DNA from: Deroplatys truncata
Taxonomy: Eukaryota; Arthropoda; Insecta; Mantodea; Mantidae
Assembly (NCBI GenBank): GCA_030765065.1
Contig: CM060983.1
Location: forward strand, 51,706,067-51,770,066
Length of the DNA stretch: 64,000 nt
Direction of reading: 5' to 3'
Below, one piece after another: positions 11,279 through 36,895 of this stretch. The notes below the pieces were generated by a model, which ran no database searches, was not told the origin of the DNA, and saw nothing but the letters and a program-made list of their open reading frames with translations. The number at the start of each line of letters is the position of its first letter. The first letter of the stretch is position 1. A program made the position numbers and the translations under genes.

Positions 11279-11279
11279 A

Positions 11280-11319: not shown

Positions 11320-11321
<2 letters not shown>

Positions 11322-13539: not shown

Positions 13540-13542
<3 letters not shown>

Positions 13543-13572
13543 GCCTGTGAAGCCCTCCTCATTCTGAATTAA

Positions 13573-17718: not shown

Positions 17719-18279
17719 TAATAAGGAATATCTCGAAAATGGTTCACTCAACAAAAAAACTGTTTATGACATAAATCGTGTATTTTAACGCGATCTACAT
17801 TTTTCTGCGGTAAAATATCGTCTATCTCTTATGGTTTACCAGTTATGCAAAAGTCTTTCACAATGAAGAATACTTTTGGGGACATTCCCAGAAAATACAG
17901 GATATACATCTTATTTGTCACAAAATTATCTTAAATATATGATATTTTAATCAAAATCGTTTGAGCCATTATTGAGAAAATTAAAAGTTTCGAAAAATTA
18001 TTCAACGTAAAGGTTAATCTGGGTTAAGGGGATTTTCTTGAAAACCTTCGTGTCGCATCTCTGGAAGATACTGAACCTAAATACCAAGTTTGGTGTTTAT
18101 CCGACTGTTCGTTTCTGAGCTATGCTGTTCATAGATACACTACACGGACATGTTTCCAAAAATGCTTTATATGCATTCAGTGCACCTCAAAACATGTATT
18201 TCCTGTGAAATCTCGGTATCGAATTTTTGGGGGAATGCAATACTTCCCCTATTTACTATACGTAGTAGAGAAAGTAAAA
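17719..18279 (-). repeat. Family A interspersed repeat, 5' part missing
   Basis: It begins inside the repeat (AATATCTCGAAAATGGTTCA) and reaches the canonical edge at CGTAGTAGAGAAAGTAAAAA. Together with the previous entry it implies unequal recombination between tandem copies. Confidence 0.65.
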
Positions 18280-18477
18280 ACATTGATCTCTTTAAAGCAC
18301 CCAATTTATATTAAATAAAACTCATTTTAGCGTTAAACATTTTCGAAATTAGGTTTGTCATCGCTTTGAATTTCCAATTAATTATATTTTTTTTTCTAGT
18401 GGTAACTCGTTATTCCTTTTTTTCTTGTTATCATCCAAAAAACATGTAATTTCAAAGCCATCACATAGAGATCCGCT

Positions 18478-18998
18478 TTTTAAAATTCTGATGTGTTATT
18501 TCCCATGACTTTCCCTACCCTCTATCGCTTATTAGTGGGTATCTAGGCTCTTCTTGCTAAAGAAGTTTTCCTATTTCCTACATTTTAATTCAAAAACACC
18601 TTTACAGACATAGCTACATTACACATTTCGCTGTAGATATAAAGGGAACAGCGATAGTCAAATGTTTAAGAACTAGACAGTATATACTGGCCTTAAAATT
18701 CCATAGTGTTTCCATGCTATTGCGAGCAACAACTGAATGTTAAAAGTACTTTAAAGAATGTCCAAGTAATGAACAATTGGAACCATTAATGACGAAATTC
18801 TGAAATGGTTGATGGCATACAAAACGTTATTTGACATAAATTGTGTTATTCAAAGAGATCTGCATTTCTTGTATGGTACATTTTCGTGTATTGGTCAACG
18901 TTTATTAATCATACAAGATTATACAAAACTCCTCCCAAATAAAGAATACTTCACAGGCTATTCCAAGAAAATTCAAGAGATACATTTTATTTGTCACG
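18478..18998 (-). repeat. Family B repeat, left half of a copy split by the palindromic element
   Basis: It starts AAATTCTGATGTGTTATTTC and carries the B-type markers CCTCTATCGCTTATTAG and GCAACAACTGAATG. It runs to TTTGTCACG, where the element with its TAAATG duplication interrupts it. The match resumes at 36896. Confidence 0.75.
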
Positions 18999-19004
18999 TA
19001 AATG
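18999..19004. repeat. 6-bp target-site duplication, left
   Basis: TAAATG is repeated at 36890-36895. Other B copies have TGTAAATATCTTTAAT at this point, so removing the element and one TAAATG restores the repeat. Confidence 0.9.
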
Positions 19005-19034
19005 AGTAGGATATATAGGAGAGAGCTGGCGCAG

Positions 19035-19950
19035 TTTTTTGCGTTTATATGGGAAAGGATAGGGAAAACGAGGCTAGATGCGACGGTTCAAGGAGGAAAA
19101 TGCGTTTATATGGGGGAGATAGGGAATACGAGGACTGACGCTAGGCTAGACAGTGGTAGGAGGGAGAGTGCGCTTTATATGAGAGAGGTAGAGGAATATG
19201 AGGAGAAGTGCTAGGCTAGACAGAGGCTGAGTAATGTATGGTTTATATGAGCGGTATAGGAAAACGCGGAGATGTGTTAGGCTAGACAGGGCTTGAAACG
19301 TAGTGCATGGTTTATATGAGAGATATAGGAAAACGAGGAAAGGTGTTAGGCTAGACAGAAGTCGAGGAGTAGAGTATGGTTTATATGAGAAGTATAGGAA
19401 AACGAGGAGAGGTATTAGGTTAGGAGAATTGAGTTTGTGTTTATAAGGAGAGACGAGAAAACGGAGAGAGATCCTATGCTAGGATAGACAGGTGTTAAAG
19501 TTAGGTTAGATAGGAAACCAAGGAGTGATACTCAGCTAGAGGGGGGCAGGAGGGAATGAGCTTTTGAGAGGTAGGGGATACGGGGAGTGGTGTTAGACTA
19601 GACAGAGGTTTAGAGTATGCGTTTATATGTATGAGAAGTATAGGAACAGGAAGAGGGGTGCTAGGCTAGTCAGAGGTTGAGGAGTAGAGTATAGTTTATA
19701 TGAGAGGTATAGGAAAACGAGGAGAGGAGTTAGACTAGACAGAGGTCGAGGAGCAGAGTATGGTTTATGTGAGAGTCATAGGTAAACGAGAGAGGCGTTA
19801 GGCTAGACAGAGCTAGAGGAGTAGAGTATGGTTTATATGAGAGGTATAGGAACAGGAGGAGAGGTGTTAGGCTAGACAGGTAGTGTAGCAGTAGGAATAT
19901 GGACTTATATACAGGAGAGCTAGGGAATATGAGGTGCTAGACTTGAAAGC
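19035..19950 (+). repeat. Subterminal minisatellite, about 67-bp unit (left arm)
   Basis: Degenerate tandem units contain GTTTATATGAGAGGTATAGG, AAACGAGGAGAGG and GTTAGGCTAGACAGAGG. There are roughly fourteen units with variable spacing, and the order is the same in the mirror copy. Confidence 0.85.
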
Positions 19951-20032
19951 GACTTTAGACGTGAACTTAGTGGAAAACTGTTTCATGTCAATGTTCTAGA
20001 CATACCCATCACGTAACCTATTCAGGGAAAAG

Positions 20033-20222
20033 GTGACTCGTTCAGGGGAAAAAGGTGACTGCTCAGGGAAAAAGGAGGTCCACAAAGGGAAAAAGTTGAC
20101 TAGCAAAGGGAAAAACGTGACCAGCAAAGGGAAAAAGGCGACCAGCAAAGGGAAAAATGTGACCAGCAAAGGGAAAAAGGTGAGCCATAAAGGTAAAAAG
20201 GTGACCTGCAACGGGAAAAGCT
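20033..20222 (+). repeat. 18-bp minisatellite (left arm)
   Basis: About ten tandem copies of an 18-bp unit (GACCAGCAAAGGGAAAAA). The period is a multiple of three and lacks stops, so both strands stay open: a lysine-rich 63-residue frame inward and a hydrophobic 71-residue frame outward. I regard both as by-products of the repeat. Confidence 0.9.
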
Positions 20223-20229
20223 AACCCAC

Positions 20230-22000
20230 TAACACTAACAGGTAAGTAATTCAGCTAGTATTGCAAGAGGTTGACTGCATCATAGCAGTGTATGATTTCA
20301 CATGTAATTCAGCTAGTATCGTATGTATTTAGGCTAATTCATCTAGTAACACAGAATAGATTCCAGAGGCTAACTGCATCATGGCTCTGCATAATTTCAC
20401 AGATAATTCAGCTAGTATCGTAGGTATTTAGGCTAATTCAGCTAGTATCACAAGAGGATAGATTCTAGGGTTGGGTATAGCTTAGTGTCGTATTTCACAG
20501 GTAATTCAGCTAGTATCGTAGGTATTTAGGCTAATTCAGCTAGTATCACAGGAGGCTAGATTCCAGGGTTGGGTATAGCATAGTTTCATATTTCACAGGT
20601 AATTCAGAGGGTATCGTAGGTATTTAGGATAATTCAAGTAACATAGGTGTTTAGAGTAATTAAGCAAGTATCACAGGAGGCTAGATTCCAGGGTTGGGTA
20701 TAGCATAGTTTCGTATTTCAGAGGGTATCGTAGGTATTTAGGATAATTCAAGTAACATAGGTGTTTAGAGTAATTAAGCAAGTATCACAGGAGGCTAGAT
20801 TCCAGGGTTGGGTATAGCATAGTTTCGTATTTCAGAGGGTATCGTAGGTATTTAGGATAATTCAAGTAACATAGGTGTTTAGAGTAATTAAGCAAGCATT
20901 ACAGGAGGGTAGGTTCCAGGGGTTGGTTATAACCTAGCTTCGTATTTCACAGATAGTTCAGGTAATATCGTAAGTATTTGAGGTAATCGACAGAGCTTTA
21001 CAGATATTATTGATAATTTCGATCAGAGATTTGTATCACAGCTATTTAAGGTAAATGCAGATGATTCAGGTTGTATCAATGGTATTTGAGTCATCTTAAC
21101 AGGTAATTCAGATAGTATCACAGGTGCTCGTGCTAATTTAGAGCAGGAATTCGTATCAGAGCTAGTTAAAGTAATTTCACATGATTCGGGTAGTATCACA
21201 GGTATTTAAATCATTTTCATAGCCAATTCAGCTAGTATCGTGAGCATTTAAGCTAATTCAGCTAGTATCACAGGAGGCTAGATTCCAGAGGCTAACTGCA
21301 TCATAGCTATGCATGATTTCACAGCTAATTCAGCTAGTATCGTAGGTATTTAAATCATTTTCATTGCCAATTCAGCTAGTATCGTGAGCATTTAAGCTAA
21401 TTCAGCTAGTATCACAGGAGGCTAGATTCCAGAGGCTAACTGCATCATAGCTATGCATGATTTCACAGCTAATTCAGCTAGTATCGTAGGTATTTAGGCT
21501 AATTCAGGTAGTATCACAGGAGGCTAGATTCCAGGGTTGGGTATAGCATAGTTTCATATTTCAAGGTAATTCAGAGGGTATCGTAGGTATTTAGGATAAT
21601 TCAAGTAACATAGGTGCTTAGAGTAATTAAGCAAGCATTACAGGAGGGTAGGTTCCAGGGGTTGGTTATAGCCTAGTTTCGTATTTTACAGATAGTTCAG
21701 GTAATATCATAAGTATTTGGATAATCAGCATAGTTTCACAGATGCTCGTAATAATTTCTATCAGAGATTTGTATCACGGCTATTTAAGGTAAATGCAGCT
21801 GATTCAGGTTGTATCAATGGTATTTGAGTCATTTTAACAGATAATTCTGATAGTATCACAGGTGCTCGTACTAATTTAGAGTAGGAATTCGTATCTGAGC
21901 TAGTTAATGTAATTTCACTTGATTCGAGTAGTATCACAGATATTTAAGTCATTTTAACAGGCAATTCAACTGGTATCACAGGTACTCATGGTAATATAGA
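20230..22000 (+). repeat. Degenerate 30-bp/116-bp minisatellite field (left arm)
   Basis: Many variants of AATTCAGCTAGTATCGTAGG and TATTTAGGCTAATTCA occur. Some are arranged in higher-order blocks of about 116 bp that include GCTAGATTCCAGGGTTGGG, most regular around 20660-20900. No coding potential is visible. Confidence 0.85.
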
Positions 22001-22370
22001 GAGTAATTCGATTATAAAACTTTTCTCATCCAGCGTTACAACAATTTATATACTTTTTTCTAAATCTTACAAATTTTTATATGTTAAACAGTTATTGTAC
22101 GATGCAGAGAGGGATAAACTGTATATGGTTTACAAACTGAAAAGCTTTGCGTCAACATACCTTTATTTCAGTTCGTTATAGATGTCTCTCCCCTTTTATC
22201 TAGGCTTGAGACTAGCACTAGGATTGCTCCTAATGGCAGGGTTACCACCTTCCCTTCCATCTTCCTCTTTCTTCATCAGGCGTCAGCTATCTGCATATAC
22301 AGCACACAGATAACCTTCTTTTTAAGATTGTAGACTCACGAGAAAATCTTTATCTTTAACTTACATTCTT
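22001..22370 (-). other. 3' flank of the left polymerase gene
   Basis: It includes a poly(A) signal read on the minus strand at 22162-22167 (AATAAA), about 205 bp after the stop codon. The interval 22168-22370 is therefore the likely 3' untranslated region. Confidence 0.55.
22162..22167 (-). promoter_or_regulatory. Poly(A) signal of the left polymerase gene
   Basis: AATAAA on the minus strand, 204 bp beyond the stop codon, with the identical site at 33727-33732 in the other arm. Confidence 0.6.
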
Positions 22371-25300
22371 TTAAGCACTGTTTGTAATGGCGTAATGTCC
22401 ATACGCATATGTCGTTATCCCATCCTCAGCAATAATTCTTTTATCATCAAACGGAGTCAATGCAATTTTATTCACTTGCACTGTAGCAAGAGCATGCTTT
22501 CGTGATAGGATCAGACTCATAGGTGTTCTGATGATTTCACAGGTTTTAAGACAGTCTGTATAGCTGTCAAACGAAATGTACTGCTTAATAGCGCTACGTT
22601 TTATACCTTTAATCTTTTTTATCATTGACCCTTGAATATCTAAGGCATACATCTTAGGACGTAGTCCAACAAAGCGTAGGATGATTTTGCTATTAGCCTC
22701 ATCTTTAAATTTTCCCAATACCTTCTTGTTCTGAGAAGAGTAACATATATGGTTGGCAGGGTAATCAGATGTATCGAGATGCTCAAGAAAACGTAGCTTG
22801 TCCTGGTACACATCTTCAGTTGTTACACGATGAATGAACGAATCAGTGTCCATATACATAAGCTTCAGGTTTTCAGCTCCATAATAAGGCAACAAAAAGT
22901 CGTAATGATAGTTATACATTAATGTCTTGGAGATGTCCAACACACTCATACCAATGTATATAGGCTTGTTGAATACAATCTGACGAGAGGCCATATGTAC
23001 AGCAGCTAGATTATCAGCATATATCGTCCTGTCGATAAACGTAGGCTTGGCGATCAGCTTCTCTAGAGTTTTTTCATTGGTCACCAGTCGTATATCCATA
23101 CGGTTACGCAGGTTCTCCATAGTTTTTCCAAACATAGCGTTGTTAAAGAGCTTGTAGAGATCCTTCTCGAAATCATTTGCAGCTTGTTGTCGTAGCCTGT
23201 TGTTAAATTCCACATAAGGTTTCAACCACTGAGACTGTCGGAATTGTAGCACACGATGGATTTTTGTTAGTCGTAGTCCATGACTAAGAGCTTGCTTCAA
23301 AGCCATGTAATGCACTACATACTTCTTTCGAGGTCCAAGATGAGGTATCAGTTTCTTTGTAGATGATTCCAATGGTTTCATACACTCTGGCAGGAAAGGT
23401 AGATCGTTGTGTAGATCGTGAAGTTCAGCAGGATACTCGATGTCGACTTCTAATATGTACCCATGAGGATCATCTTCTTGTAGTGTTTCTAAGTTGATTT
23501 CTTCAGGCGACACCCACTGAAATCCACCAAAAGGAAGGGCGTGACACATTGCCCACCCATATTGGTTATTAGCGTCCTCGTATGTGATAAATTGGGTTGG
23601 TCTCGACGGATCAAACTTATCCATATAAGTGTTATTAGCCTCAGCATACCGATGGGAAACTTGGCATAAACCTCCTCTTATACCTGATTCCACCATGAGT
23701 AGTTGATCATAATCTTGTAACAGCTCCAGTTTAATTTCAGTATACAGTAACATGGCGTCCCATGTAAGACCTGGAGAGGTAAAATAATGGGCAGGATCAA
23801 CTTTGTGTGTTTTAAGGGTTTGCTCTCTGAACGTCTCAAAGACATCAGCTAGGAGAAGTACATCCGAAGTTAAGTAGAGATCGCTGTACTCTCCCAGGTT
23901 TCTCACATTAAACAGCTCCCATACATTTCTAGCATGATCGTAGTCAGTATCAGTAATTTCTTCTTCGTTTAATCTATTGTAGAAGCAGTCCTTAGGAGGC
24001 AAGCAGGTCTCGTTCAGGACATCCCATGACGTAACAAAATCATAGGGAAATACACCCTTACGGGTCATCAACTTCAATTTGTCTTCTCCAAAGTACTTTA
24101 GAGTTTCAGGATACGAGGTTAGATTTTTTACCAACTTATCCAAGCTTGTACTGAGGAATCGGAAGCTATCCACAAATCGAAGCTTTATATCTCCTACATA
24201 CTTGGTGAATGAGATATAGCTTTCTTCAGAGTTAGGAATTACCTCCACACGTTCACTTGTACAACCCAGCTCCTTAACAATGAAATGAGAGTCATATCCG
24301 CTAAGGTTATGCATGAAGACTGGTATATATTTAGGTGTTTTACAGGCTAAATTACATTCATTATGAAGACTTCCACGATATTCACCGCTGATGTGATCAT
24401 GGTCGCGTACTTTATAGTTCTCTTCTGTAAAGGGTTTTCCACACAAGTAGCATGCTGAAGAAGACTCAAAATCCTTTTGCTGTTGTTCCGTAAGTTTCAG
24501 AGGCTTAGCAGATTTGTATATATTACCAATCATTTTTGCAAGAGATGTAAGGTACAGCATAAACTTCTGAGCAGCATCTGCACCACGATACACATAGGGC
24601 TGCTTAGGAAGACCAGTTTCGAGATGTTCAACACTGGATGTAGGCTTCACGTAAACACAGAAGCTCATTGGTGTGTGCTCTTGATAAGGGGTTGTATAGG
24701 AAGTTTCAGGATTGGGTATACACGTATGGCATGGAGTGAGAATACTCTCAAAATCAGCATAGATGACATAAGGTACTTTCAGCATCCTCTCAACATTTTT
24801 AAACTGAACAATTGATTTCTCCTTGGTAGGCATAACTACCCTCGCAACACCATGTTGAATACAGAAGGCTGCATGTTCTTGTAGTTTTTCCTGTCCACTT
24901 CGTCCATATCGATCATCAAAATGTGTAAAGCAGCGCTTACAAGTATAAACCCGTCCATTATGGTTAGTTTTCTGGCGTCGAACGAGTTTCTCAAAATTCT
25001 TTATATACACGTAGTGATGTTTTCCACTGCTGTCATTCAATAGTAGCAAGTCGCGATGTTCAGGTAGTTCAATGTCAGCAACCTTTATTGGATACACTTC
25101 ATGCTTCTCATCCAGCCCGAAAACGTTAATGGATATCTTGTTAAACTTCTCAAATTTAGGTATTTGAGAAAGTGGAGTAGGGTAGGAAACACAGCTGAAG
25201 TCGTACTTATCTTGAAGTTGTTTGTATTTGCTGACGCGTTGAGGCTTGATGCTCACGAATTTGGCCAGTATAGAGTACATGAAACATTTCTCGTCGCTAA

Positions 25301-26024
25301 AGTTCTGGATGTTTATACATGCTTTCCTTGCTTCAACAGCTGAAGGTAGTGGTATGTAGCTACTTCCTCGTAACGGGTTGTACTTGTTGATACGAAGTCG
25401 AACTCCTTCCACAGCAAGCAAAGCCCAGCTGCTACCCTTAAGCTGAGACTCCTCCATTTCAGTCACCAATTTCTTGAATTTCACTTCCATCGTTGCCTCC
25501 AGATCAGTTTCCAGGAAAACAGCTTGATTCCGTGTTTTAAATGTTTTGTCACAGGTTTCTCCAATACTGTTAACAAATCGACACTCAGCCAGCAGATTAA
25601 TTTTAACACTCTTATGAATGCTAAGCTCCTTATGCACAGCCTGGATTATACGTTGTTTTGCCTCTTGCAGATACATATTCAGGTCCTTAGCTGATTCGCA
25701 TCGTATAAAATACGATTTCAATCGTCCTTCGAATGAAGTTTCGTATTCTTTCATATCACAGTCCTCCATTGTTGACAGTAACTGATGTTTAGTTGGCTCC
25801 AATCTTCTTTTCTTCTGAGGGCTGCTTATTTCACATATATCTTCGTGTCGCTGCCCCTTATAACCATCTTTGAAGGTTACATTACAATGTTTACATTTGA
25901 AGAGCTTCTTGCAGCTCATCTCGTGTCTTCTCTTGTCATAACCTCGGAGGAACTTCTTCCCACATTTTCCGCATGCATATCCAGTAGCGCTTGGAATAAT
26001 ATCCTTATACGCTGAGTTATTCAT
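22371..26024 (-). CDS. Protein-primed-type DNA polymerase B with internal endonuclease VII domain (left copy)
   Basis: It would replicate the element's DNA and is likely nuclear. The protein has 1,217 residues. Order of parts: two C2HC-type zinc fingers (C18/C21/H34/C38 and C44/C47/H60/C64), then a region typical of multi-copy arthropod polymerases (about 90-345). A third finger follows (C362/C365/H384/C388), then exonuclease motif I (YADFE, 422-426). An endonuclease VII-like HNH segment spans about 525-561 (C525/C528, DHDH 541-544, C557/C561). Next come exonuclease II (NLSGYD, 573-578) and III (Y717/D721), then the polymerase motifs: GIRGG 781-785, motif A around D817, motif B KLFNNAMFG 958-966 and motif C YMDTDS 1057-1062. 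Polymerase and exonuclease signatures are all present. The start is the first ATG after a TATA/Inr promoter. It is identical in protein sequence to the copy at 29870-33523. The family is known from Polintons and arthropod repeats, and the primer role of a terminal protein is inferred. Confidence 0.9.
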   Translation of the reverse strand: MNNSAYKDIIPSATGYACGKCGKKFLRGYDKRRHEMSCKKLFKCKHCNVTFKDGYKGQRHEDICEISSPQKKRRLEPTKHQLLSTMEDCDMKEYETSFEGRLKSYFIRCESAKDLNMYLQEAKQRIIQAVHKELSIHKSVKINLLAECRFVNSIGETCDKTFKTRNQAVFLETDLEATMEVKFKKLVTEMEESQLKGSSWALLAVEGVRLRINKYNPLRGSSYIPLPSAVEARKACINIQNFSDEKCFMYSILAKFVSIKPQRVSKYKQLQDKYDFSCVSYPTPLSQIPKFEKFNKISINVFGLDEKHEVYPIKVADIELPEHRDLLLLNDSSGKHHYVYIKNFEKLVRRQKTNHNGRVYTCKRCFTHFDDRYGRSGQEKLQEHAAFCIQHGVARVVMPTKEKSIVQFKNVERMLKVPYVIYADFESILTPCHTCIPNPETSYTTPYQEHTPMSFCVYVKPTSSVEHLETGLPKQPYVYRGADAAQKFMLYLTSLAKMIGNIYKSAKPLKLTEQQQKDFESSSACYLCGKPFTEENYKVRDHDHISGEYRGSLHNECNLACKTPKYIPVFMHNLSGYDSHFIVKELGCTSERVEVIPNSEESYISFTKYVGDIKLRFVDSFRFLSTSLDKLVKNLTSYPETLKYFGEDKLKLMTRKGVFPYDFVTSWDVLNETCLPPKDCFYNRLNEEEITDTDYDHARNVWELFNVRNLGEYSDLYLTSDVLLLADVFETFREQTLKTHKVDPAHYFTSPGLTWDAMLLYTEIKLELLQDYDQLLMVESGIRGGLCQVSHRYAEANNTYMDKFDPSRPTQFITYEDANNQYGWAMCHALPFGGFQWVSPEEINLETLQEDDPHGYILEVDIEYPAELHDLHNDLPFLPECMKPLESSTKKLIPHLGPRKKYVVHYMALKQALSHGLRLTKIHRVLQFRQSQWLKPYVEFNNRLRQQAANDFEKDLYKLFNNAMFGKTMENLRNRMDIRLVTNEKTLEKLIAKPTFIDRTIYADNLAAVHMASRQIVFNKPIYIGMSVLDISKTLMYNYHYDFLLPYYGAENLKLMYMDTDSFIHRVTTEDVYQDKLRFLEHLDTSDYPANHICYSSQNKKVLGKFKDEANSKIILRFVGLRPKMYALDIQGSMIKKIKGIKRSAIKQYISFDSYTDCLKTCEIIRTPMSLILSRKHALATVQVNKIALTPFDDKRIIAEDGITTYAYGHYAITNSA

Positions 26025-26157
26025 CTTTATTCTTGATGTAATAACGTATTAATCACTGATCAATTAAATGTAGACCTCTTCACCTTGACACCACTTTAGA
26101 AAGCTGATTATTCTTGGAGAGAACACGATGTTAACACCTCAAGACTAATTAGCGCAA

Positions 26158-26190
26158 TGAACTCCAATGCCCTAGATCACCGTATTTATA
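26158..26190 (-). promoter_or_regulatory. TATA/Inr core promoter of the left polymerase gene
   Basis: On the minus strand TATAAATA occupies 26190-26183, and an insect-type initiator TTCATT places the start at about 26158, 32 bp downstream. This leaves a 133-134-bp leader before the ATG. The spacing is what RNA polymerase II promoters need. The mirror copy is at 29704-29736. Confidence 0.65.
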
Positions 26191-26668
26191 GAGGGAGCAC
26201 GAGCCTTTTAGATCAATCATAAACTCGCTCCATAGCTACCTGTATATGTTTGCTCCACGCGTATTAACCTCACGCCCAGAGTCAGGATGTTTATGACGTC
26301 ACACCCAGAGACAGGATGTCTGGCAGTATCAAACACGTTTAAACTCGTCTCATAACTACCTGCTTATGATGTCACACCAACAAGAGAAGTATTCCCACAC
26401 GTTCATTCAGACATATATTTCAAATTCAAGCCCACCACCACCATCACCACCTATTGTACCAAGGTTAATTCAAGCTTTATTATCACAATACTTAAAAGTG
26501 AAAGCTTAAAAGGAAACCTAGAAGATTTTCCCCCTCATTTACTTAATTATTTCATGTTTTTATTCCCTTTTCAATTCTTCCTTTCCATCTTCTCACAGAA
26601 AGACCATTACATTTCACTACAATCATGAGAAAAGCAATTTTTCCAGAGTTACACAGATTCTAAGCTTC
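26191..26668. other. Promoter-upstream region (left arm)
   Basis: It contains a short direct duplication around GTTTATGACGTCACACCCAG (26275-26320) and CACCACCACC near 26440. No gene is seen. It may hold regulatory sites, since a TGACGTCA core, the CRE/ATF consensus, is present at 26293-26300. Confidence 0.4.
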
Positions 26669-27783
26669 TAAATCGAACCCGGTAATACTTTTAATAAATG
26701 TATTTTAGCTCCCCAATATCAGCATCTACCATTTAATCTTTACTCGAACCTGATATGATCCATAAGCTTGAAGATATATGAAATCACCCTTCGGGATTCG
26801 ATCTAAGTACTTTAAAGTAATTTTTGTCACGATAACGATATTTAAGGACTAGATACTCTGTTTACGTTTACCTTGACATGTCTATCTAAATTAAATTACG
26901 AGTTATTAAATGTTTGCAAGTAAATTTCATTGAATCGGTATTCGAACCCAGAACACCAGGAACAAAATAATTTATAATATTAGTCTGACATGTTAAACAA
27001 AGTTGTATGCAGTTACATCATCGATCTAGGTGATATATTCTAGTGTACAGAGGAAAATTAAGGAAGTCATTAAAAGATGAGGAATCGAACCAAGCACAAC
27101 TGATTGACAATTATATACAGCATTAATCACCCATCATAGAAGCTATCAATCATGCTTTGCTGCACTCCTCTACCTCACTTAGTTCCCGAGATAATGAAAA
27201 TTTAAAAATTAAGGATCGAACCCAGGACGTCAGGTATCTAATTACACATTTACAAGATACTACCTAATATCATAAACGCAATAAAGTTTATTTGGCGTCT
27301 TTATCTTAATTGGTTTAGGAGTTATTAAATTTATAAGTAAATTCCATCGAATCAGTATTCGAACCCAGAACACCAAGAACAAAATAATTTATAATATGAG
27401 TTTGGTATGCTTAAAGGTGCTGTACGTAGTTACAGCATCAATCTAAGTGATATTTTATAGAGTATAGAGTAAAATTAAGGAAGTCATTAAAAAATCGGGA
27501 TTCGAACTAGAGACAACTGATTAAAAATTATATACAGTATTAATTACACATTATAACAGCTATCAAACATGCTTTGGTCCATTCCTCTAGCTTTCTTAGT
27601 TTCCGAGATAATGAAGTTTTTAAAATTAAGGATCGACCCCAGGACACCAGGTACCCAAATATACATTTACAAGCAACTATCTAATAACATTAATGTAATA
27701 AAGTTTATTTGGCGTCTTTATCTTAATTAGTCTCCGAGTTATTAGAAGATGAATTTGTAATCACTCGTAGGATTCGAACCCAG
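26669..27783 (-). repeat. B-box-like motif array (left arm)
   Basis: This is the mirror of 28111-29225. Ten GGTTCGAATCC-like motifs on the minus strand point toward the polymerase gene, mostly 131-144 bp apart. On the plus strand they read as GGATTCGAACCC. Details are given with the right-arm copy. Confidence 0.75.
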
Positions 27784-27911
27784 GCATCCCGGTCAACTTG
27801 GAACAATGTTCTAATGACGCGGCGCATTCCAAAGAATTGATTAGTTTTTATCCCATTGTTCTATCTCTTTTCATTCAGGAGATATAAGCGATTAAACAGT
27901 AGAAATAGAAT

Positions 27912-27982
27912 GGACGGAGCTTGCCGGCATAGATCAAAGAACTTTATCAGATGTCGGCATCTCTCTGTGCGCTCAAACCGGT
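27912..27982. other. 71-bp unique centre of the palindrome
   Basis: This is the only part of the element without a mirror partner. It contains GCCGGCAT near its left third and ATGTCGGCAT further right, a short imperfect inverted pair. It would be the loop of a giant hairpin. No coding potential is visible. Confidence 0.85.
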
Positions 27983-28110
27983 ATTCTATTTCTACTGTTT
28001 AATCGCTTATATCTCCTGAATGAAAAGAGATAGAACAATGGGATAAAAACTAGTCAATTCTTTGGAATGCGCCGCGTCATTAGAACATTGTTCCAAGTTG
28101 ACCGGGATGC

Positions 28111-29225
28111 CTGGGTTCGAATCCTACGAGTGATTACAAATTCATCTTCTAATAACTCGGAGACTAATTAAGATAAAGACGCCAAATAAACTTTATTACA
28201 TTAATGTTATTAGATAGTTGCTTGTAAATGTATATTTGGGTACCTGGTGTCCTGGGTTCGATCCTTAATTTTAAAAACTTCATTATCTCGGAAACTAAGA
28301 AAGCTAGAGGAATGGACCAAAGCATGTTTGATAGCTGTTATAATGTGTAATTAATACTGTATATAATTTTTAATCAGTTGTCTCTAGTTCGAATCCCGAT
28401 TTTTTAATGACTTCCTTAATTTTACTCTATACTCTATAAAATATCACTTAGATTGATGCTGTAACTACGTACAGCACCTTTAAGCATACCAAACTCATAT
28501 TATAAATTATTTTGTTCTTGGTGTTCTGGGTTCGAATACTGATTCGATGGAATTTACTTATAAATTTAATAACTCCTAAACCAATTAAGATAAAGACGCC
28601 AAATAAACTTTATTGCGTTTATGATATTAGGTAGTATCTTGTAAATGTGTAATTAGATACCTGACGTCCTGGGTTCGATCCTTAATTTTTAAATTTTCAT
28701 TATCTCGGGAACTAAGTGAGGTAGAGGAGTGCAGCAAAGCATGATTGATAGCTTCTATGATGGGTGATTAATGCTGTATATAATTGTCAATCAGTTGTGC
28801 TTGGTTCGATTCCTCATCTTTTAATGACTTCCTTAATTTTCCTCTGTACACTAGAATATATCACCTAGATCGATGATGTAACTGCATACAACTTTGTTTA
28901 ACATGTCAGACTAATATTATAAATTATTTTGTTCCTGGTGTTCTGGGTTCGAATACCGATTCAATGAAATTTACTTGCAAACATTTAATAACTCGTAATT
29001 TAATTTAGATAGACATGTCAAGGTAAACGTAAACAGAGTATCTAGTCCTTAAATATCGTTATCGTGACAAAAATTACTTTAAAGTACTTAGATCGAATCC
29101 CGAAGGGTGATTTCATATATCTTCAAGCTTATGGATCATATCAGGTTCGAGTAAAGATTAAATGGTAGATGCTGATATTGGGGAGCTAAAATACATTTAT
29201 TAAAAGTATTACCGGGTTCGATTTA
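28111..29225 (+). repeat. B-box-like motif array, ~140-bp period (right arm)
   Basis: Motifs start at 28114, 28255, 28386, 28529, 28672, 28803, 28946, 29090, 29144 and 29215. The first matches the tRNA internal promoter B box GGTTCGANTCC exactly, and the others differ by one to a few bases. Steps are 141, 131, 143, 143, 131, 143 and 144 bp, then 54 and 71. The intervening DNA also repeats: units 1, 4 and 7 resemble each other, as do 2 and 5, and 3 and 6, giving a higher-order unit of about 416 bp. All motifs point toward the polymerase gene. No full tRNA cloverleaf or clear A box was found. They could be TFIIIC-binding sites, tRNA-derived tandem repeats or iterons. Confidence 0.75.
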
Positions 29226-29703
29226 GAAGCTTAGAATCTGTGTAACTCTGGAAAAATTGCTTTTCTCATGATTGTAGTGAAATGTAATGGTCTTTCTGTG
29301 AGAAGATGGAAAGGAAGAATTGAAAAGGGAATAAAAACATGAAATAATTAAGTAAATGAGGGGGAAAATCTTCTAGGTTTCCTTTTAAGCTTTCACTTTT
29401 AAGTATTGTGATAATAAAGCTTGAATTAACCTTGGTACAATAGGTGGTGATGGTGGTGGTGGGCTTGAATTTGAAATATATGTCTGAATGAACGTGTGGG
29501 AATACTTCTCTTGTTGGTGTGACATCATAAGCAGGTAGTTATGAGACGAGTTTAAACGTGTTTGATACTGCCAGACATCCTGTCTCTGGGTGTGACGTCA
29601 TAAACATCCTGACTCTGGGCGTGAGGTTAATACGCGTGGAGCAAACATATACAGGTAGCTATGGAGCGAGTTTATGATTGATCTAAAAGGCTCGTGCTCC
29701 CTC
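29226..29703. other. Promoter-upstream region (right arm)
   Basis: Mirror of 26191-26668. It includes a TGACGTCA element at 29594-29601, about 140 bp before the inferred transcription start. Confidence 0.4.
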
Positions 29704-29736
29704 TATAAATACGGTGATCTAGGGCATTGGAGTTCA
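29704..29736 (+). promoter_or_regulatory. TATA/Inr core promoter of the right polymerase gene
   Basis: TATAAATA at 29704-29711 and an insect-type initiator TTCATT at 29733-29738 give a predicted start at A29736, 32 bp downstream. The leader to the ATG at 29870 is 134 bp. Confidence 0.65.
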
Positions 29737-29869
29737 TTGCGCTAATTAGTCTTGAGGTGTTAACATCGTGTTCTCTCCAAGAATAATCAGCTTTCTAAAG
29801 TGGTGTCAAGGTGAAGAGGTCTACATTTAATTGATCAGTGATTAATACGTTATTACATCAAGAATAAAG

Positions 29870-32800
29870 ATGAATAACTCAGCGTATAAGGATATTATTC
29901 CAAGCGCTACTGGATATGCATGCGGAAAATGTGGGAAGAAGTTCCTCCGAGGTTATGACAAGAGAAGACACGAGATGAGCTGCAAGAAGCTCTTCAAATG
30001 TAAACATTGTAATGTAACCTTCAAAGATGGTTATAAGGGGCAGCGACACGAAGATATATGTGAAATAAGCAGCCCTCAGAAGAAAAGAAGATTGGAGCCA
30101 ACTAAACATCAGTTACTGTCAACAATGGAGGACTGTGATATGAAAGAATACGAAACTTCATTCGAAGGACGATTGAAATCGTATTTTATACGATGCGAAT
30201 CAGCTAAGGACCTGAATATGTATCTGCAAGAGGCAAAACAACGTATAATCCAGGCTGTGCATAAGGAGCTTAGCATTCATAAGAGTGTTAAAATTAATCT
30301 GCTGGCTGAGTGTCGATTTGTTAACAGTATTGGAGAAACCTGTGACAAAACATTTAAAACACGGAATCAAGCTGTTTTCCTGGAAACTGATCTGGAGGCA
30401 ACGATGGAAGTGAAATTCAAGAAATTGGTGACTGAAATGGAGGAGTCTCAGCTTAAGGGTAGCAGCTGGGCTTTGCTTGCTGTGGAAGGAGTTCGACTTC
30501 GTATCAACAAGTACAACCCGTTACGAGGAAGTAGCTACATACCACTACCTTCAGCTGTTGAAGCAAGGAAAGCATGTATAAACATCCAGAACTTTAGCGA
30601 CGAGAAATGTTTCATGTACTCTATACTGGCCAAATTCGTGAGCATCAAGCCTCAACGCGTCAGCAAATACAAACAACTTCAAGATAAGTACGACTTCAGC
30701 TGTGTTTCCTACCCTACTCCACTTTCTCAAATACCTAAATTTGAGAAGTTTAACAAGATATCCATTAACGTTTTCGGGCTGGATGAGAAGCATGAAGTGT
30801 ATCCAATAAAGGTTGCTGACATTGAACTACCTGAACATCGCGACTTGCTACTATTGAATGACAGCAGTGGAAAACATCACTACGTGTATATAAAGAATTT
30901 TGAGAAACTCGTTCGACGCCAGAAAACTAACCATAATGGACGGGTTTATACTTGTAAGCGCTGCTTTACACATTTTGATGATCGATATGGACGAAGTGGA
31001 CAGGAAAAACTACAAGAACATGCAGCCTTCTGTATTCAACATGGTGTTGCGAGGGTAGTTATGCCTACCAAGGAGAAATCAATTGTTCAGTTTAAAAATG
31101 TTGAGAGGATGCTGAAAGTACCTTATGTCATCTATGCTGATTTTGAGAGTATTCTCACTCCATGCCATACGTGTATACCCAATCCTGAAACTTCCTATAC
31201 AACCCCTTATCAAGAGCACACACCAATGAGCTTCTGTGTTTACGTGAAGCCTACATCCAGTGTTGAACATCTCGAAACTGGTCTTCCTAAGCAGCCCTAT
31301 GTGTATCGTGGTGCAGATGCTGCTCAGAAGTTTATGCTGTACCTTACATCTCTTGCAAAAATGATTGGTAATATATACAAATCTGCTAAGCCTCTGAAAC
31401 TTACGGAACAACAGCAAAAGGATTTTGAGTCTTCTTCAGCATGCTACTTGTGTGGAAAACCCTTTACAGAAGAGAACTATAAAGTACGCGACCATGATCA
31501 CATCAGCGGTGAATATCGTGGAAGTCTTCATAATGAATGTAATTTAGCCTGTAAAACACCTAAATATATACCAGTCTTCATGCATAACCTTAGCGGATAT
31601 GACTCTCATTTCATTGTTAAGGAGCTGGGTTGTACAAGTGAACGTGTGGAGGTAATTCCTAACTCTGAAGAAAGCTATATCTCATTCACCAAGTATGTAG
31701 GAGATATAAAGCTTCGATTTGTGGATAGCTTCCGATTCCTCAGTACAAGCTTGGATAAGTTGGTAAAAAATCTAACCTCGTATCCTGAAACTCTAAAGTA
31801 CTTTGGAGAAGACAAATTGAAGTTGATGACCCGTAAGGGTGTATTTCCCTATGATTTTGTTACGTCATGGGATGTCCTGAACGAGACCTGCTTGCCTCCT
31901 AAGGACTGCTTCTACAATAGATTAAACGAAGAAGAAATTACTGATACTGACTACGATCATGCTAGAAATGTATGGGAGCTGTTTAATGTGAGAAACCTGG
32001 GAGAGTACAGCGATCTCTACTTAACTTCGGATGTACTTCTCCTAGCTGATGTCTTTGAGACGTTCAGAGAGCAAACCCTTAAAACACACAAAGTTGATCC
32101 TGCCCATTATTTTACCTCTCCAGGTCTTACATGGGACGCCATGTTACTGTATACTGAAATTAAACTGGAGCTGTTACAAGATTATGATCAACTACTCATG
32201 GTGGAATCAGGTATAAGAGGAGGTTTATGCCAAGTTTCCCATCGGTATGCTGAGGCTAATAACACTTATATGGATAAGTTTGATCCGTCGAGACCAACCC
32301 AATTTATCACATACGAGGACGCTAATAACCAATATGGGTGGGCAATGTGTCACGCCCTTCCTTTTGGTGGATTTCAGTGGGTGTCGCCTGAAGAAATCAA
32401 CTTAGAAACACTACAAGAAGATGATCCTCATGGGTACATATTAGAAGTCGACATCGAGTATCCTGCTGAACTTCACGATCTACACAACGATCTACCTTTC
32501 CTGCCAGAGTGTATGAAACCATTGGAATCATCTACAAAGAAACTGATACCTCATCTTGGACCTCGAAAGAAGTATGTAGTGCATTACATGGCTTTGAAGC
32601 AAGCTCTTAGTCATGGACTACGACTAACAAAAATCCATCGTGTGCTACAATTCCGACAGTCTCAGTGGTTGAAACCTTATGTGGAATTTAACAACAGGCT
32701 ACGACAACAAGCTGCAAATGATTTCGAGAAGGATCTCTACAAGCTCTTTAACAACGCTATGTTTGGAAAAACTATGGAGAACCTGCGTAACCGTATGGAT

Positions 32801-33523
32801 ATACGACTGGTGACCAATGAAAAAACTCTAGAGAAGCTGATCGCCAAGCCTACGTTTATCGACAGGACGATATATGCTGATAATCTAGCTGCTGTACATA
32901 TGGCCTCTCGTCAGATTGTATTCAACAAGCCTATATACATTGGTATGAGTGTGTTGGACATCTCCAAGACATTAATGTATAACTATCATTACGACTTTTT
33001 GTTGCCTTATTATGGAGCTGAAAACCTGAAGCTTATGTATATGGACACTGATTCGTTCATTCATCGTGTAACAACTGAAGATGTGTACCAGGACAAGCTA
33101 CGTTTTCTTGAGCATCTCGATACATCTGATTACCCTGCCAACCATATATGTTACTCTTCTCAGAACAAGAAGGTATTGGGAAAATTTAAAGATGAGGCTA
33201 ATAGCAAAATCATCCTACGCTTTGTTGGACTACGTCCTAAGATGTATGCCTTAGATATTCAAGGGTCAATGATAAAAAAGATTAAAGGTATAAAACGTAG
33301 CGCTATTAAGCAGTACATTTCGTTTGACAGCTATACAGACTGTCTTAAAACCTGTGAAATCATCAGAACACCTATGAGTCTGATCCTATCACGAAAGCAT
33401 GCTCTTGCTACAGTGCAAGTGAATAAAATTGCATTGACTCCGTTTGATGATAAAAGAATTATTGCTGAGGATGGGATAACGACATATGCGTATGGACATT
33501 ACGCCATTACAAACAGTGCTTAA
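29870..33523 (+). CDS. Protein-primed-type DNA polymerase B with internal endonuclease VII domain (right copy)
   Basis: Its protein sequence is identical to the product of 22371-26024, where the domains are listed. It has three zinc fingers, a 3'-5' proofreading exonuclease with an HNH endonuclease VII-like segment between exonuclease motifs I and II, and a palm with motifs A, B and C ending in YMDTDS. It is transcribed outward from the palindrome centre, so the two genes are divergent and about 3.8 kb apart. No other protein-coding frame of note lies in the arm; frames on the opposite strand are shadows. Together with the ends of the element it would supply replication. Integration functions are not encoded. 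Fusing a Holliday-junction-type nuclease fold to a polymerase is notable in a palindromic DNA, but any link is an inference. Confidence 0.9.
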   Translation: MNNSAYKDIIPSATGYACGKCGKKFLRGYDKRRHEMSCKKLFKCKHCNVTFKDGYKGQRHEDICEISSPQKKRRLEPTKHQLLSTMEDCDMKEYETSFEGRLKSYFIRCESAKDLNMYLQEAKQRIIQAVHKELSIHKSVKINLLAECRFVNSIGETCDKTFKTRNQAVFLETDLEATMEVKFKKLVTEMEESQLKGSSWALLAVEGVRLRINKYNPLRGSSYIPLPSAVEARKACINIQNFSDEKCFMYSILAKFVSIKPQRVSKYKQLQDKYDFSCVSYPTPLSQIPKFEKFNKISINVFGLDEKHEVYPIKVADIELPEHRDLLLLNDSSGKHHYVYIKNFEKLVRRQKTNHNGRVYTCKRCFTHFDDRYGRSGQEKLQEHAAFCIQHGVARVVMPTKEKSIVQFKNVERMLKVPYVIYADFESILTPCHTCIPNPETSYTTPYQEHTPMSFCVYVKPTSSVEHLETGLPKQPYVYRGADAAQKFMLYLTSLAKMIGNIYKSAKPLKLTEQQQKDFESSSACYLCGKPFTEENYKVRDHDHISGEYRGSLHNECNLACKTPKYIPVFMHNLSGYDSHFIVKELGCTSERVEVIPNSEESYISFTKYVGDIKLRFVDSFRFLSTSLDKLVKNLTSYPETLKYFGEDKLKLMTRKGVFPYDFVTSWDVLNETCLPPKDCFYNRLNEEEITDTDYDHARNVWELFNVRNLGEYSDLYLTSDVLLLADVFETFREQTLKTHKVDPAHYFTSPGLTWDAMLLYTEIKLELLQDYDQLLMVESGIRGGLCQVSHRYAEANNTYMDKFDPSRPTQFITYEDANNQYGWAMCHALPFGGFQWVSPEEINLETLQEDDPHGYILEVDIEYPAELHDLHNDLPFLPECMKPLESSTKKLIPHLGPRKKYVVHYMALKQALSHGLRLTKIHRVLQFRQSQWLKPYVEFNNRLRQQAANDFEKDLYKLFNNAMFGKTMENLRNRMDIRLVTNEKTLEKLIAKPTFIDRTIYADNLAAVHMASRQIVFNKPIYIGMSVLDISKTLMYNYHYDFLLPYYGAENLKLMYMDTDSFIHRVTTEDVYQDKLRFLEHLDTSDYPANHICYSSQNKKVLGKFKDEANSKIILRFVGLRPKMYALDIQGSMIKKIKGIKRSAIKQYISFDSYTDCLKTCEIIRTPMSLILSRKHALATVQVNKIALTPFDDKRIIAEDGITTYAYGHYAITNSA

Positions 33524-33893
33524 AAGAATGTAAGTTAAAGATAAAGATTTTCTCGTGAGTCTACAATCTTAAAAAGAAGGTTATCTGTGTGCTGTATATG
33601 CAGATAGCTGACGCCTGATGAAGAAAGAGGAAGATGGAAGGGAAGGTGGTAACCCTGCCATTAGGAGCAATCCTAGTGCTAGTCTCAAGCCTAGATAAAA
33701 GGGGAGAGACATCTATAACGAACTGAAATAAAGGTATGTTGACGCAAAGCTTTTCAGTTTGTAAACCATATACAGTTTATCCCTCTCTGCATCGTACAAT
33801 AACTGTTTAACATATAAAAATTTGTAAGATTTAGAAAAAAGTATATAAATTGTTGTAACGCTGGATGAGAAAAGTTTTATAATCGAATTACTC
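33524..33893 (+). other. 3' flank of the right polymerase gene
   Basis: Mirror of 22001-22370. It holds the probable 3' untranslated region up to shortly after the poly(A) signal at 33727-33732. Confidence 0.55.
33727..33732 (+). promoter_or_regulatory. Poly(A) signal of the right polymerase gene
   Basis: AATAAA, 204 bp after the stop codon. Confidence 0.6.
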
Positions 33894-35664
33894 TCTATAT
33901 TACCATGAGTACCTGTGATACCAGTTGAATTGCCTGTTAAAATGACTTAAATATCTGTGATACTACTCGAATCAAGTGAAATTACATTAACTAGCTCAGA
34001 TACGAATTCCTACTCTAAATTAGTACGAGCACCTGTGATACTATCAGAATTATCTGTTAAAATGACTCAAATACCATTGATACAACCTGAATCAGCTGCA
34101 TTTACCTTAAATAGCCGTGATACAAATCTCTGATAGAAATTATTACGAGCATCTGTGAAACTATGCTGATTATCCAAATACTTATGATATTACCTGAACT
34201 ATCTGTAAAATACGAAACTAGGCTATAACCAACCCCTGGAACCTACCCTCCTGTAATGCTTGCTTAATTACTCTAAGCACCTATGTTACTTGAATTATCC
34301 TAAATACCTACGATACCCTCTGAATTACCTTGAAATATGAAACTATGCTATACCCAACCCTGGAATCTAGCCTCCTGTGATACTACCTGAATTAGCCTAA
34401 ATACCTACGATACTAGCTGAATTAGCTGTGAAATCATGCATAGCTATGATGCAGTTAGCCTCTGGAATCTAGCCTCCTGTGATACTAGCTGAATTAGCTT
34501 AAATGCTCACGATACTAGCTGAATTGGCAATGAAAATGATTTAAATACCTACGATACTAGCTGAATTAGCTGTGAAATCATGCATAGCTATGATGCAGTT
34601 AGCCTCTGGAATCTAGCCTCCTGTGATACTAGCTGAATTAGCTTAAATGCTCACGATACTAGCTGAATTGGCTATGAAAATGATTTAAATACCTGTGATA
34701 CTACCCGAATCATGTGAAATTACTTTAACTAGCTCTGATACGAATTCCTGCTCTAAATTAGCACGAGCACCTGTGATACTATCTGAATTACCTGTTAAGA
34801 TGACTCAAATACCATTGATACAACCTGAATCATCTGCATTTACCTTAAATAGCTGTGATACAAATCTCTGATCGAAATTATCAATAATATCTGTAAAGCT
34901 CTGTCGATTACCTCAAATACTTACGATATTACCTGAACTATCTGTGAAATACGAAGCTAGGTTATAACCAACCCCTGGAACCTACCCTCCTGTAATGCTT
35001 GCTTAATTACTCTAAACACCTATGTTACTTGAATTATCCTAAATACCTACGATACCCTCTGAAATACGAAACTATGCTATACCCAACCCTGGAATCTAGC
35101 CTCCTGTGATACTTGCTTAATTACTCTAAACACCTATGTTACTTGAATTATCCTAAATACCTACGATACCCTCTGAAATACGAAACTATGCTATACCCAA
35201 CCCTGGAATCTAGCCTCCTGTGATACTTGCTTAATTACTCTAAACACCTATGTTACTTGAATTATCCTAAATACCTACGATACCCTCTGAATTACCTGTG
35301 AAATATGAAACTATGCTATACCCAACCCTGGAATCTAGCCTCCTGTGATACTAGCTGAATTAGCCTAAATACCTACGATACTAGCTGAATTACCTGTGAA
35401 ATACGACACTAAGCTATACCCAACCCTAGAATCTATCCTCTTGTGATACTAGCTGAATTAGCCTAAATACCTACGATACTAGCTGAATTATCTGTGAAAT
35501 TATGCAGAGCCATGATGCAGTTAGCCTCTGGAATCTATTCTGTGTTACTAGATGAATTAGCCTAAATACATACGATACTAGCTGAATTACATGTGAAATC
35601 ATACACTGCTATGATGCAGTCAACCTCTTGCAATACTAGCTGAATTACTTACCTGTTAGTGTTA
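33894..35664 (-). repeat. Degenerate 30-bp/116-bp minisatellite field (right arm)
   Basis: Mirror of 20230-22000. Units read CTGAATTAGCCTAAATACC and ACGATACTAGCTGAATTA on the plus strand. Confidence 0.85.
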
Positions 35665-35671
35665 GTGGGTT

Positions 35672-35861
35672 AGCTTTTCCCGTTGCAGGTCACCTTTTTA
35701 CCTTTATGGCTCACCTTTTTCCCTTTGCTGGTCACATTTTTCCCTTTGCTGGTCGCCTTTTTCCCTTTGCTGGTCACGTTTTTCCCTTTGCTAGTCAACT
35801 TTTTCCCTTTGTGGACCTCCTTTTTCCCTGAGCAGTCACCTTTTTCCCCTGAACGAGTCAC
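35672..35861 (-). repeat. 18-bp minisatellite (right arm)
   Basis: Mirror of 20033-20222. The plus strand reads TTTTTCCCTTTGCTGGTC units and gives a hydrophobic open frame (35683-35898) downstream of the polymerase gene and in the same direction. Confidence 0.9.
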
Positions 35862-35943
35862 CTTTTCCCTGAATAGGTTACGTGATGGGTATGTCTAGAA
35901 CATTGACATGAAACAGTTTTCCACTAAGTTCACGTCTAAAGTC

Positions 35944-36859
35944 GCTTTCAAGTCTAGCACCTCATATTCCCTAGCTCTCCTGTATATAAGTCCATATTCC
36001 TACTGCTACACTACCTGTCTAGCCTAACACCTCTCCTCCTGTTCCTATACCTCTCATATAAACCATACTCTACTCCTCTAGCTCTGTCTAGCCTAACGCC
36101 TCTCTCGTTTACCTATGACTCTCACATAAACCATACTCTGCTCCTCGACCTCTGTCTAGTCTAACTCCTCTCCTCGTTTTCCTATACCTCTCATATAAAC
36201 TATACTCTACTCCTCAACCTCTGACTAGCCTAGCACCCCTCTTCCTGTTCCTATACTTCTCATACATATAAACGCATACTCTAAACCTCTGTCTAGTCTA
36301 ACACCACTCCCCGTATCCCCTACCTCTCAAAAGCTCATTCCCTCCTGCCCCCCTCTAGCTGAGTATCACTCCTTGGTTTCCTATCTAACCTAACTTTAAC
36401 ACCTGTCTATCCTAGCATAGGATCTCTCTCCGTTTTCTCGTCTCTCCTTATAAACACAAACTCAATTCTCCTAACCTAATACCTCTCCTCGTTTTCCTAT
36501 ACTTCTCATATAAACCATACTCTACTCCTCGACTTCTGTCTAGCCTAACACCTTTCCTCGTTTTCCTATATCTCTCATATAAACCATGCACTACGTTTCA
36601 AGCCCTGTCTAGCCTAACACATCTCCGCGTTTTCCTATACCGCTCATATAAACCATACATTACTCAGCCTCTGTCTAGCCTAGCACTTCTCCTCATATTC
36701 CTCTACCTCTCTCATATAAAGCGCACTCTCCCTCCTACCACTGTCTAGCCTAGCGTCAGTCCTCGTATTCCCTATCTCCCCCATATAAACGCATTTTCCT
36801 CCTTGAACCGTCGCATCTAGCCTCGTTTTCCCTATCCTTTCCCATATAAACGCAAAAAA
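35944..36859 (-). repeat. Subterminal minisatellite, about 67-bp unit (right arm)
   Basis: Mirror of 19035-19950. Units contain CCTCTGTCTAGCCTAAC and CTCATATAAACCATAC. Confidence 0.85.
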
Positions 36860-36889
36860 CTGCGCCAGCTCTCTCCTATATATCCTACT

Positions 36890-36895
36890 TAAATG
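36890..36895. repeat. 6-bp target-site duplication, right
   Basis: TAAATG, identical to 18999-19004. Confidence 0.9.

What the first reader, a model, noticed from the sequence alone, without database searches (positions are those of the whole stretch)
19005..36889. A 17.9-kb mobile element that is one giant palindrome carrying two polymerase genes
Two 8,907-bp arms mirror each other exactly in coordinates around 27947, each with the same intact polymerase gene, leaving only 71 bp unpaired. Known Polintons have terminal inverted repeats of hundreds of bases and a set of different genes in between; here the inverted repeat is the whole element. This could be a new class of polymerase-only element, or a head-to-head dimer made by template switching or by copying a hairpin end during protein-primed replication.
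Basis: partly seen in the sequence, partly recalled or inferred. Interest (0 to 1): 0.95.

Follow-up and report, generated by a model that had tools for sequence, protein, structure and literature searches.

The report
Mobile palindrome carrying twin DNA polymerases
A large eukaryotic genome contains hundreds of copies of a mobile DNA element that is almost entirely one 18,000-base mirror image, each half carrying the same DNA-copying enzyme, and the two halves change together, which suggests that each half is copied from the other when the element multiplies.

Summary
Arms 19005-27911 and 27983-36889 mirror each other at 8,905 of 8,907 positions around a 71-nt spacer, and each carries an open 1,217-aa PolB gene. 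A 6-bp duplication (TAAATG) flanks the palindrome, so it inserted as such.

It is not a one-off. In the 4.29-Gb host assembly the 25-nt tip occurs 1,104 times and the spacer 511 times, with none in reversed-pattern controls: perhaps 500-550 elements. All 14 copies read at both ends have perfect 6-bp duplications, no two alike. Of copies with a usable marker, 10 of 12 (centre) and 8 of 8 (gene pair) are symmetric to within 2 bp although lengths differ. In nine copies the two pol genes differ by 0-6 of 3,654 bp; between copies the median is 21. A 12%-diverged lineage is palindromic too.

Best reading: a Polinton-derived element whose only recognised gene is PolB, spreading as a palindrome; arms are probably equalised during protein-primed replication through a full-length hairpin, with integrase supplied in trans. 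Palindromic mobility is shown; the replication mechanism is inferred. The open-access listings seen here show no such family. New variant of a known kind.

The parts
18999..19004 (.). left copy of the 6-bp target-site duplication TAAATG
36890..36895 (.). right copy of the 6-bp target-site duplication TAAATG
19005..27911 (+). left arm (8,907 nt)
   Evidence: 8,905/8,907 complementary to the right arm
27983..36889 (-). right arm (8,907 nt)
27912..27982 (.). unpaired 71-nt central spacer; its first 37 nt occur at 511 places in the host assembly (up to 3 mismatches)
22371..26024 (-). PolB gene, left copy (1,217 aa)
   Evidence: open frame; DNA_pol_B_2 1e-27 and Endonuclease_7 5.5e-6 on residues 401-1217 of the identical protein
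29870..33523 (+). PolB gene, right copy (1,217 aa, identical protein)
19005..19029 (+). left tip AGTAGGATATATAGGAGAGAGCTGG, shared by the family
   Evidence: 25-nt pattern, up to 1 mismatch: 555 + 549 places, reversed control 0
36865..36889 (-). right tip, the same sequence on the other strand
19174..22010 (.). subterminal tandem repeats of the left arm (units of 20-228 nt), no recognised gene
33884..36720 (.). mirror of the subterminal tandem repeats in the right arm
   Evidence: mirror coordinates
26883..27744 (.). 417-nt tandem duplication between pol and centre, left arm
28150..29011 (.). the same duplication, right arm
   Evidence: mirror coordinates; (I2, I3)

Best explanation
A high-copy mobile family derived from Polinton/Maverick elements in which the whole element is the inverted repeat. 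Each unit has two polB-bearing arms joined head to head at a short spacer, with the same tip at both outer ends. SHOWN by sequence: palindromic units sit at many sites between 6-bp duplications; one spacer is shared by hundreds of copies; the arms of one copy are more alike than different copies are, and most length differences are mirrored; the polymerase is under purifying selection. INFERRED: the element replicates by protein priming at its tips. A displaced single strand folds into a hairpin as long as the arm, so one strand alone restores the duplex origin. Copying through the loop, together with mismatch repair of the hairpin, makes the two arms identical before the next insertion. An integrase supplied in trans, probably by ordinary Polintons, inserts the product. 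The founding palindrome probably arose once, by fold-back synthesis of a displaced strand of a Polinton that thereby lost its other genes.
For: Mobility: 14 of 14 copies read at both ends have perfect 6-bp duplications, no two alike: window and 9 copies, one, one, two short copies. Copy number: 1,104 tips and 511 centres, reversed controls 0. Palindrome as rule: of 150 scored Endonuclease_7 hits, 52 adjacent divergent pairs within 12 kb, 0 convergent, 1 same-strand, 44 unpaired; control: 76 PolB genes from the listed DNA_pol_B_2 rows give one neighbouring pair within 20 kb, of two different lineages by frame length and score. Mirrored length: 46 end pairs of 4.4-23.0 kb; 17 held a listed marker; centre at the midpoint within 1.5 bp in 10 of 12, Endonuclease_7 pair within 2 bp in 8 of 8. 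Co-evolution: 9 arm pairs differ by 0-6 of 3,654 (sum 10) against a minimum of 42 in 20,000 random pairings; window pols differ by 0 and by 28-48 from every other of the 30 read. All 16 bases private to the window copy are on both arms. Diverged pair L066/L067: 99.6% to each other, 88% to the window, spacer 79% alike over 89 nt. Purifying selection: dN/dS 0.11-0.28 in 10 chosen comparisons. PolB: DNA_pol_B_2 over positions 7-463 of 468, 1e-27. Equalised before rather than after insertion: one-sided indels persist (2 of 12 centres off midpoint; flank out of register on one side in 4 of 9 arm pairs), and two internally deleted copies have arms at 99.2-99.4%.
Against: No reads, replication intermediate or activity were seen. 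No integrase, capsid, ATPase or protease was recognised in the arm, and no donor Polinton was read, so supply in trans is untested; the ATPase-like places in the genome are weak matches (29.5-34.3 bits) of a family that also rings in 2 of 14 control genomes. The terminal-protein domain was not tested (structure prediction off). Of the 16 private window changes 8 are non-synonymous, a weaker constraint than the pairwise dN/dS. The 30 polymerases were taken for closeness to the window, so 30 of 30 open frames is biased. In 3 of 9 pairs another copy is as near (2) or nearer (1) than the partner arm. Mirror symmetry is not perfect everywhere: 4 of 9 pairs have a one-sided indel near pol, two of 13 pol pairs have shortened centres, and the C6 centre leaves 445 nt unpaired between arms 91.6% alike. 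Gene conversion after insertion is not excluded.
Confidence: 0.62

Rival explanations
1. The palindrome inserts as such, but arm identity is kept afterwards by gene conversion between arms in the chromosome, as in mammalian Y palindromes (comparison recalled).
For: Arms of one copy are nearly identical while copies differ; a copy of a 12%-diverged lineage, with frames of only 759 and 935 aa, still has 99.6% identical arms in the 957 nt compared.
Against: One-sided indels are not repaired (2 of 12 centres off midpoint by 343 and 1,180 bp; 4 of 9 arm pairs); two internally deleted copies have arms at 99.2-99.4% against 8,905/8,907 for the window; the centre of the C6 copy has arms only 91.6% alike over 167 nt.
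Confidence: 0.2
2. A defective, helper-driven derivative: an ordinary Polinton or adintovirus supplies all functions including the polymerase, and the twin pol genes ride along, as in symmetrical defective adenovirus genomes (analogy recalled).
For: No integrase or capsid gene recognised in the arm; the genome holds other PolB lineages and 38 listed weak Pox_A32-like places.
Against: dN/dS 0.11-0.28 and 71 of 150 scored frames of full 1,225-codon length suggest that the pol itself is needed.
Confidence: 0.15
3. Assembly artefact or a single inverted duplication after insertion at this locus.
For: One 25.2-kb copy holds a run of exactly 1,000 N between two partial palindromes, so palindromes do trouble this assembly; no reads were available.
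Against: Flanks are not mirrored; 6-bp duplications at the edges in 14 of 14 copies; the spacer at 511 places.
Confidence: 0.02

Closest known systems
Polinton/Maverick elements (polintoviruses, adintoviruses)
   Same: PolB of the organellar/viral type; 15-20 kb size (PMC4028283, passage seen); 6-bp target duplication and AG...CT tips (both recalled as Polinton hallmarks)
   Different: no integrase, ATPase, protease or capsid gene recognised; the inverted repeat is the whole element instead of short ends; pol present twice
Symmetrical (palindromic) defective genomes of adenoviruses (recalled)
   Same: one end of a protein-primed linear genome duplicated head to head
   Different: those are by-products of infection; here one palindrome founded a chromosomal family of hundreds of copies with subfamilies
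Protein-primed linear plasmids of fungi and plants (invertrons)
   Same: linear elements with PolB and without a morphogenetic module (PMC11071308, passages and sections 6 and 9 seen)
   Different: extrachromosomal with short terminal repeats; no integration with target duplications (recalled)
Foldback transposons (recalled)
   Same: very long inverted repeats
   Different: not known to carry a polymerase gene in each arm
Bidnaviridae
   Same: PolB taken from Polintons (PMC11071308, passages seen)
   Different: encapsidated single-stranded DNA viruses

Membership tests
Polinton/Maverick | protein-primed type PolB | tested here: met
   DNA_pol_B_2 1e-27, positions 7-463 of 468; priming by protein itself not tested
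Polinton/Maverick | 6-bp target-site duplication | tested here: met
   14 of 14 copies read at both ends; that this is the Polinton hallmark is recalled
Polinton/Maverick | AG...CT termini | tested here: met
   AGTAGG...CCTACT; hallmark recalled
Polinton/Maverick | RVE-type integrase gene | tested here: not met
   no other frame of 200 aa or more; ten of the shorter frames outside pol: no integrase by Pfam at E 1
Polinton/Maverick | FtsK/A32-type ATPase, cysteine protease, capsid genes | tested here: not met
Polinton/Maverick | terminal-protein domain and vOTU-like protease domain at the PolB N-terminus | tested here: inconclusive
   a Cys (DEKC, within residues 241-256) and a His (HHYV, within 334-344) that could belong to a vOTU domain, by eye (domain order from PMC11071308); structure prediction off
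Palindromic defective adenovirus-like genome | non-propagating by-product that depends on a helper | tested here: inconclusive
   hundreds of insertions and purifying selection speak against a mere by-product; helper dependence not tested

The most novel reading that the evidence does not exclude
A class of mobile element whose entire genome is its own inverted repeat and whose only protein is a self-priming polymerase. Replication runs through a full-length hairpin, so every round copies one arm onto the other: the element needs no single-strand binding protein or second strand, keeps two identical polymerase genes and corrects one arm with the other, and borrows an integrase for insertion.
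Probability: 0.45. Interest if true: 0.92.

Novelty: new variant of a known kind. Interest (0 to 1): 0.86.

Why it matters
[quoted passage not shown] A successful family reduced to a doubled polymerase and its ends would show how little a protein-primed element needs, and that an almost perfect palindrome of 18 kb, usually thought unstable (recalled), can be a heritable and proliferating form. Hundreds of copies of different ages make arm homogenisation, hairpin replication and palindrome stability measurable from one genome. It also bears on assembly, since such loci are easily collapsed or misjoined.

Tried and rejected
Assembly artefact and single-locus duplication: rejected (see rivals). 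Single-armed progenitor: sought by reading unusual lengths; L057 (9.1 kb) and L058 (4.4 kb) are internally deleted palindromes with 6-bp duplications; the 25.2-kb copy is two partial palindromes joined across 1,000 N, with intact pol frames in its outer arms. Thirteen of 16 pairs of unusual length, among them five of 19.4-23.0 kb, and the unpaired ends (10 of 100 listed; 8 of 100) were not read, so a progenitor could be among them. A fifteenth copy (C3:131165145 on) was read at its left tip only; the right stretch that I asked for missed its end. Pol relatives in IMG/VR: 9 pattern matches, none confirmed. Phage records: the 20 of 400 records listed match only around residues 437-575, the endonuclease VII stretch. 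Rfam: no match in 19005-36889 at gathering scores. PDB by sequence: only zinc-finger matches, best E 0.21. PHROGs: endonuclease VII only. A gradient of arm mismatches towards the centre was considered (both window mismatches lie near it) and dropped, since another copy has ten clustered mismatches near its tips. The full-length Pfam scan gave no PolB hit; residues 401-1217 apart gave 1e-27. Literature, rows seen of papers found: searches (20 of 24; 25 of 37; 10 of 10; 25 of 29; 12 of 15; 40 of 135), and on protein-primed or defective palindromes 33 (15 of 26), 61 (8 of 8), 85 (15 of 87): no palindromic Polinton family in the titles or starts of abstracts listed; open-access papers only. Passages seen by term: PMC11071296, PMC11071308, PMC10680173, PMC6431247, PMC4028283, PMC2836005; sections 6 and 9 of PMC11071308.
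Full report
WHAT IS THERE. The window holds a palindrome of 17,885 bp (19005-36889): two 8,907-nt arms, complementary at 8,905 positions, around a 71-nt spacer. Each arm has one long open frame, a 1,217-aa protein, read outwards from the centre. The edges carry AGTAGG...CCTACT and a direct 6-bp duplication, TAAATG. Beyond the duplication the two flanks differ. So the palindrome was inserted as one unit by an enzyme that makes 6-bp duplications, which, with AG...CT tips, is the Polinton pattern (recalled).

THE GENE. Residues 401-1217 match Pfam DNA_pol_B_2 at 1e-27 across nearly the whole model, with an Endonuclease_7 stretch before the match; a scan of the whole protein had missed this. Exonuclease and polymerase motifs (recalled) are read by eye: DFE, HNLSGYD, YMDTDS, present in 30 of 30 pols read. 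The N-terminal part has zinc-finger-like stretches and a Cys and a His that could belong to the vOTU-like protease described for Polinton polymerases (PMC11071308, sections 6 and 9 read); this was not tested further. Outside pol the arm is largely tandem-repeat DNA with short frames. Ten of these frames gave no Pfam family at E up to 1 except one chance-level hit (E 0.094).

A FAMILY, NOT A CASE. The window lies in a 4.29-Gb assembly. The pol gene has 40 listed matches, two of them the window's at 100% and 38 more at 99% (one of these partial); only 39 candidates of 4,248 were scored. The 30-nt tip (up to 1 mismatch) occurs 295 + 292 times and its first 25 nt 555 + 549 times, with 0 in the reversed control. 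The first 37 nt of the spacer (up to 3 mismatches) occur 239 + 272 times, control 0; at least one place holds several close together. Among the first 100 listed tips, 45 make inward-facing pairs and 10 are unpaired; 29 of 45 pairs span 17.0-18.2 kb. Among the first 100, 46 pairs and 8 unpaired; 30 of 46 span 16.0-18.2 kb. Fourteen copies were read at both ends, and all fourteen have a perfect 6-bp duplication, each different. Nine of them had been picked because both tips were among the 40 best matches.

PALINDROMY IS THE RULE. Of 150 scored Endonuclease_7 hits (6,896 candidates), sorting by position gives 52 divergent neighbour pairs within 12 kb, 0 convergent, 1 same-strand and 44 unpaired hits, the usual distance being about 7.1 kb; unpaired ones may have unscored partners, and many are short. 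As a control, 76 PolB genes from the 150 listed rows give only one neighbouring pair within 20 kb, of different frame lengths and scores. The eight of these read (L001-L008) are 26-32% identical to the window protein where they match, and by eye none of the 76 coincides with a place. In 46 tip pairs, 12 hold a listed centre: 10 lie within 1.5 bp of the midpoint, two are off by 343 and 1,180 bp. Eight hold an Endonuclease_7 pair: 8 of 8 are centred within 2 bp. An earlier set of nine copies, the window among them and two shared with the 46, gave offset 0 in six, and 4, 49 and 71.5 bp in three. As the copies have different lengths, most length changes must occur on both arms.

ARMS EVOLVE TOGETHER. 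In nine element pairs, the two pols differ by 0, 6, 1, 0, 1, 0, 1, 1 and 0 of 3,654; between copies (426 comparisons) the minimum is 0, the median 21 and the maximum 52. The sum of 10 compares with at least 42 in 20,000 random pairings. Seen from the first arm of each pair, the partner is strictly the nearest of the 30 pols in 6 of 9, tied in 2 and beaten in 1. The window copy is 28 or more from any other copy and 0 between its arms; its 16 private bases are all on both arms, 8 silent and 8 not. dN/dS between copies is 0.11-0.28 in ten chosen comparisons. A pair on C6 is 88% like the window but 99.6% like itself in the stretch read, and its centre retains a spacer 79% like the window's over 89 nt, though 445 nt lie unpaired there between arms 91.6% alike. 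So the palindrome probably predates this split. One full copy read on C4 has 11 arm differences outside the spacer in 8.8 kb, ten of them clustered, and two open pols.

DECAY. The 9.1-kb and 4.4-kb copies are palindromes with internal deletions, arms 99.3% and 99.2-99.4% alike. The 25.2-kb copy consists of two partial palindromes across exactly 1,000 N, its outer arms 99.5% alike, a sign of an assembly gap. One-sided indels remain in several copies. Together this favours homogenisation during replication over conversion in the chromosome, but does not prove it.

MECHANISM. Protein-primed polymerases start at the DNA ends and displace a strand (PMC11071308, section 6; for phage phi29 also the start of the abstract of PMC4974454). 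A displaced strand of this element can pair with itself along its whole length and so recreates a duplex tip; copying it round the spacer restores the palindrome, and repair of mismatches in the hairpin equalises the arms. This accounts for near-identical arms, mirrored length changes, one shared spacer, and survival with one gene. It needs an integrase from elsewhere. The genome has other PolB lineages (control 0 of 14 genomes) and 38 listed Pox_A32-like places, which are weak matches of a family that rings in 2 of 14 controls; complete Polintons are therefore likely but none was read. Steps shown: palindromic insertion, copy number, co-evolution, constraint on pol. Steps inferred: protein priming, hairpin intermediate, trans integrase, single fold-back origin.

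NOVELTY. Polintons are described with PolB, integrase, ATPase, protease and capsid genes (PMC4028283, passages seen). The listings named under Tried and rejected show no palindromic Polinton family. By the membership test the element shares PolB, duplication length and tips with Polintons and fails on the other genes; it is therefore called Polinton-derived, not a Polinton.

Noticed in passing
host assembly C1:291345598-291350006: Six copies of the central spacer within 4.4 kb beside a lone tip at C1:291339420, as if the centre had been amplified or rearranged.
   Followed up: no
host assembly C4:38517902-38543100 (L059, L063, L060): A copy scaffolded as two partial palindromes across exactly 1,000 N, with a shared 6-bp duplication at the outer ends.
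   Followed up: partly
host assembly, rows: Other PolB genes (open frames up to 1,350 aa), several with identical scores as if near-identical copies, not arranged as palindromes among the 76 listed.
   Followed up: partly
host assembly C14:39055201 and C14:39071829: A PolB of another lineage lies about 15 kb from a palindrome-family pol, possibly nested or adjacent elements.
   Followed up: no
host assembly C16:356267430 (L001) and C16:356285623 (L068): The best DNA_pol_B_2 match lies 18 kb from a pol that is 84% like the window's.
   Followed up: no
window 1-18998 and 36896-64000: Host flanks hold many dispersed 60-300-nt repeats in both orientations.
   Followed up: no
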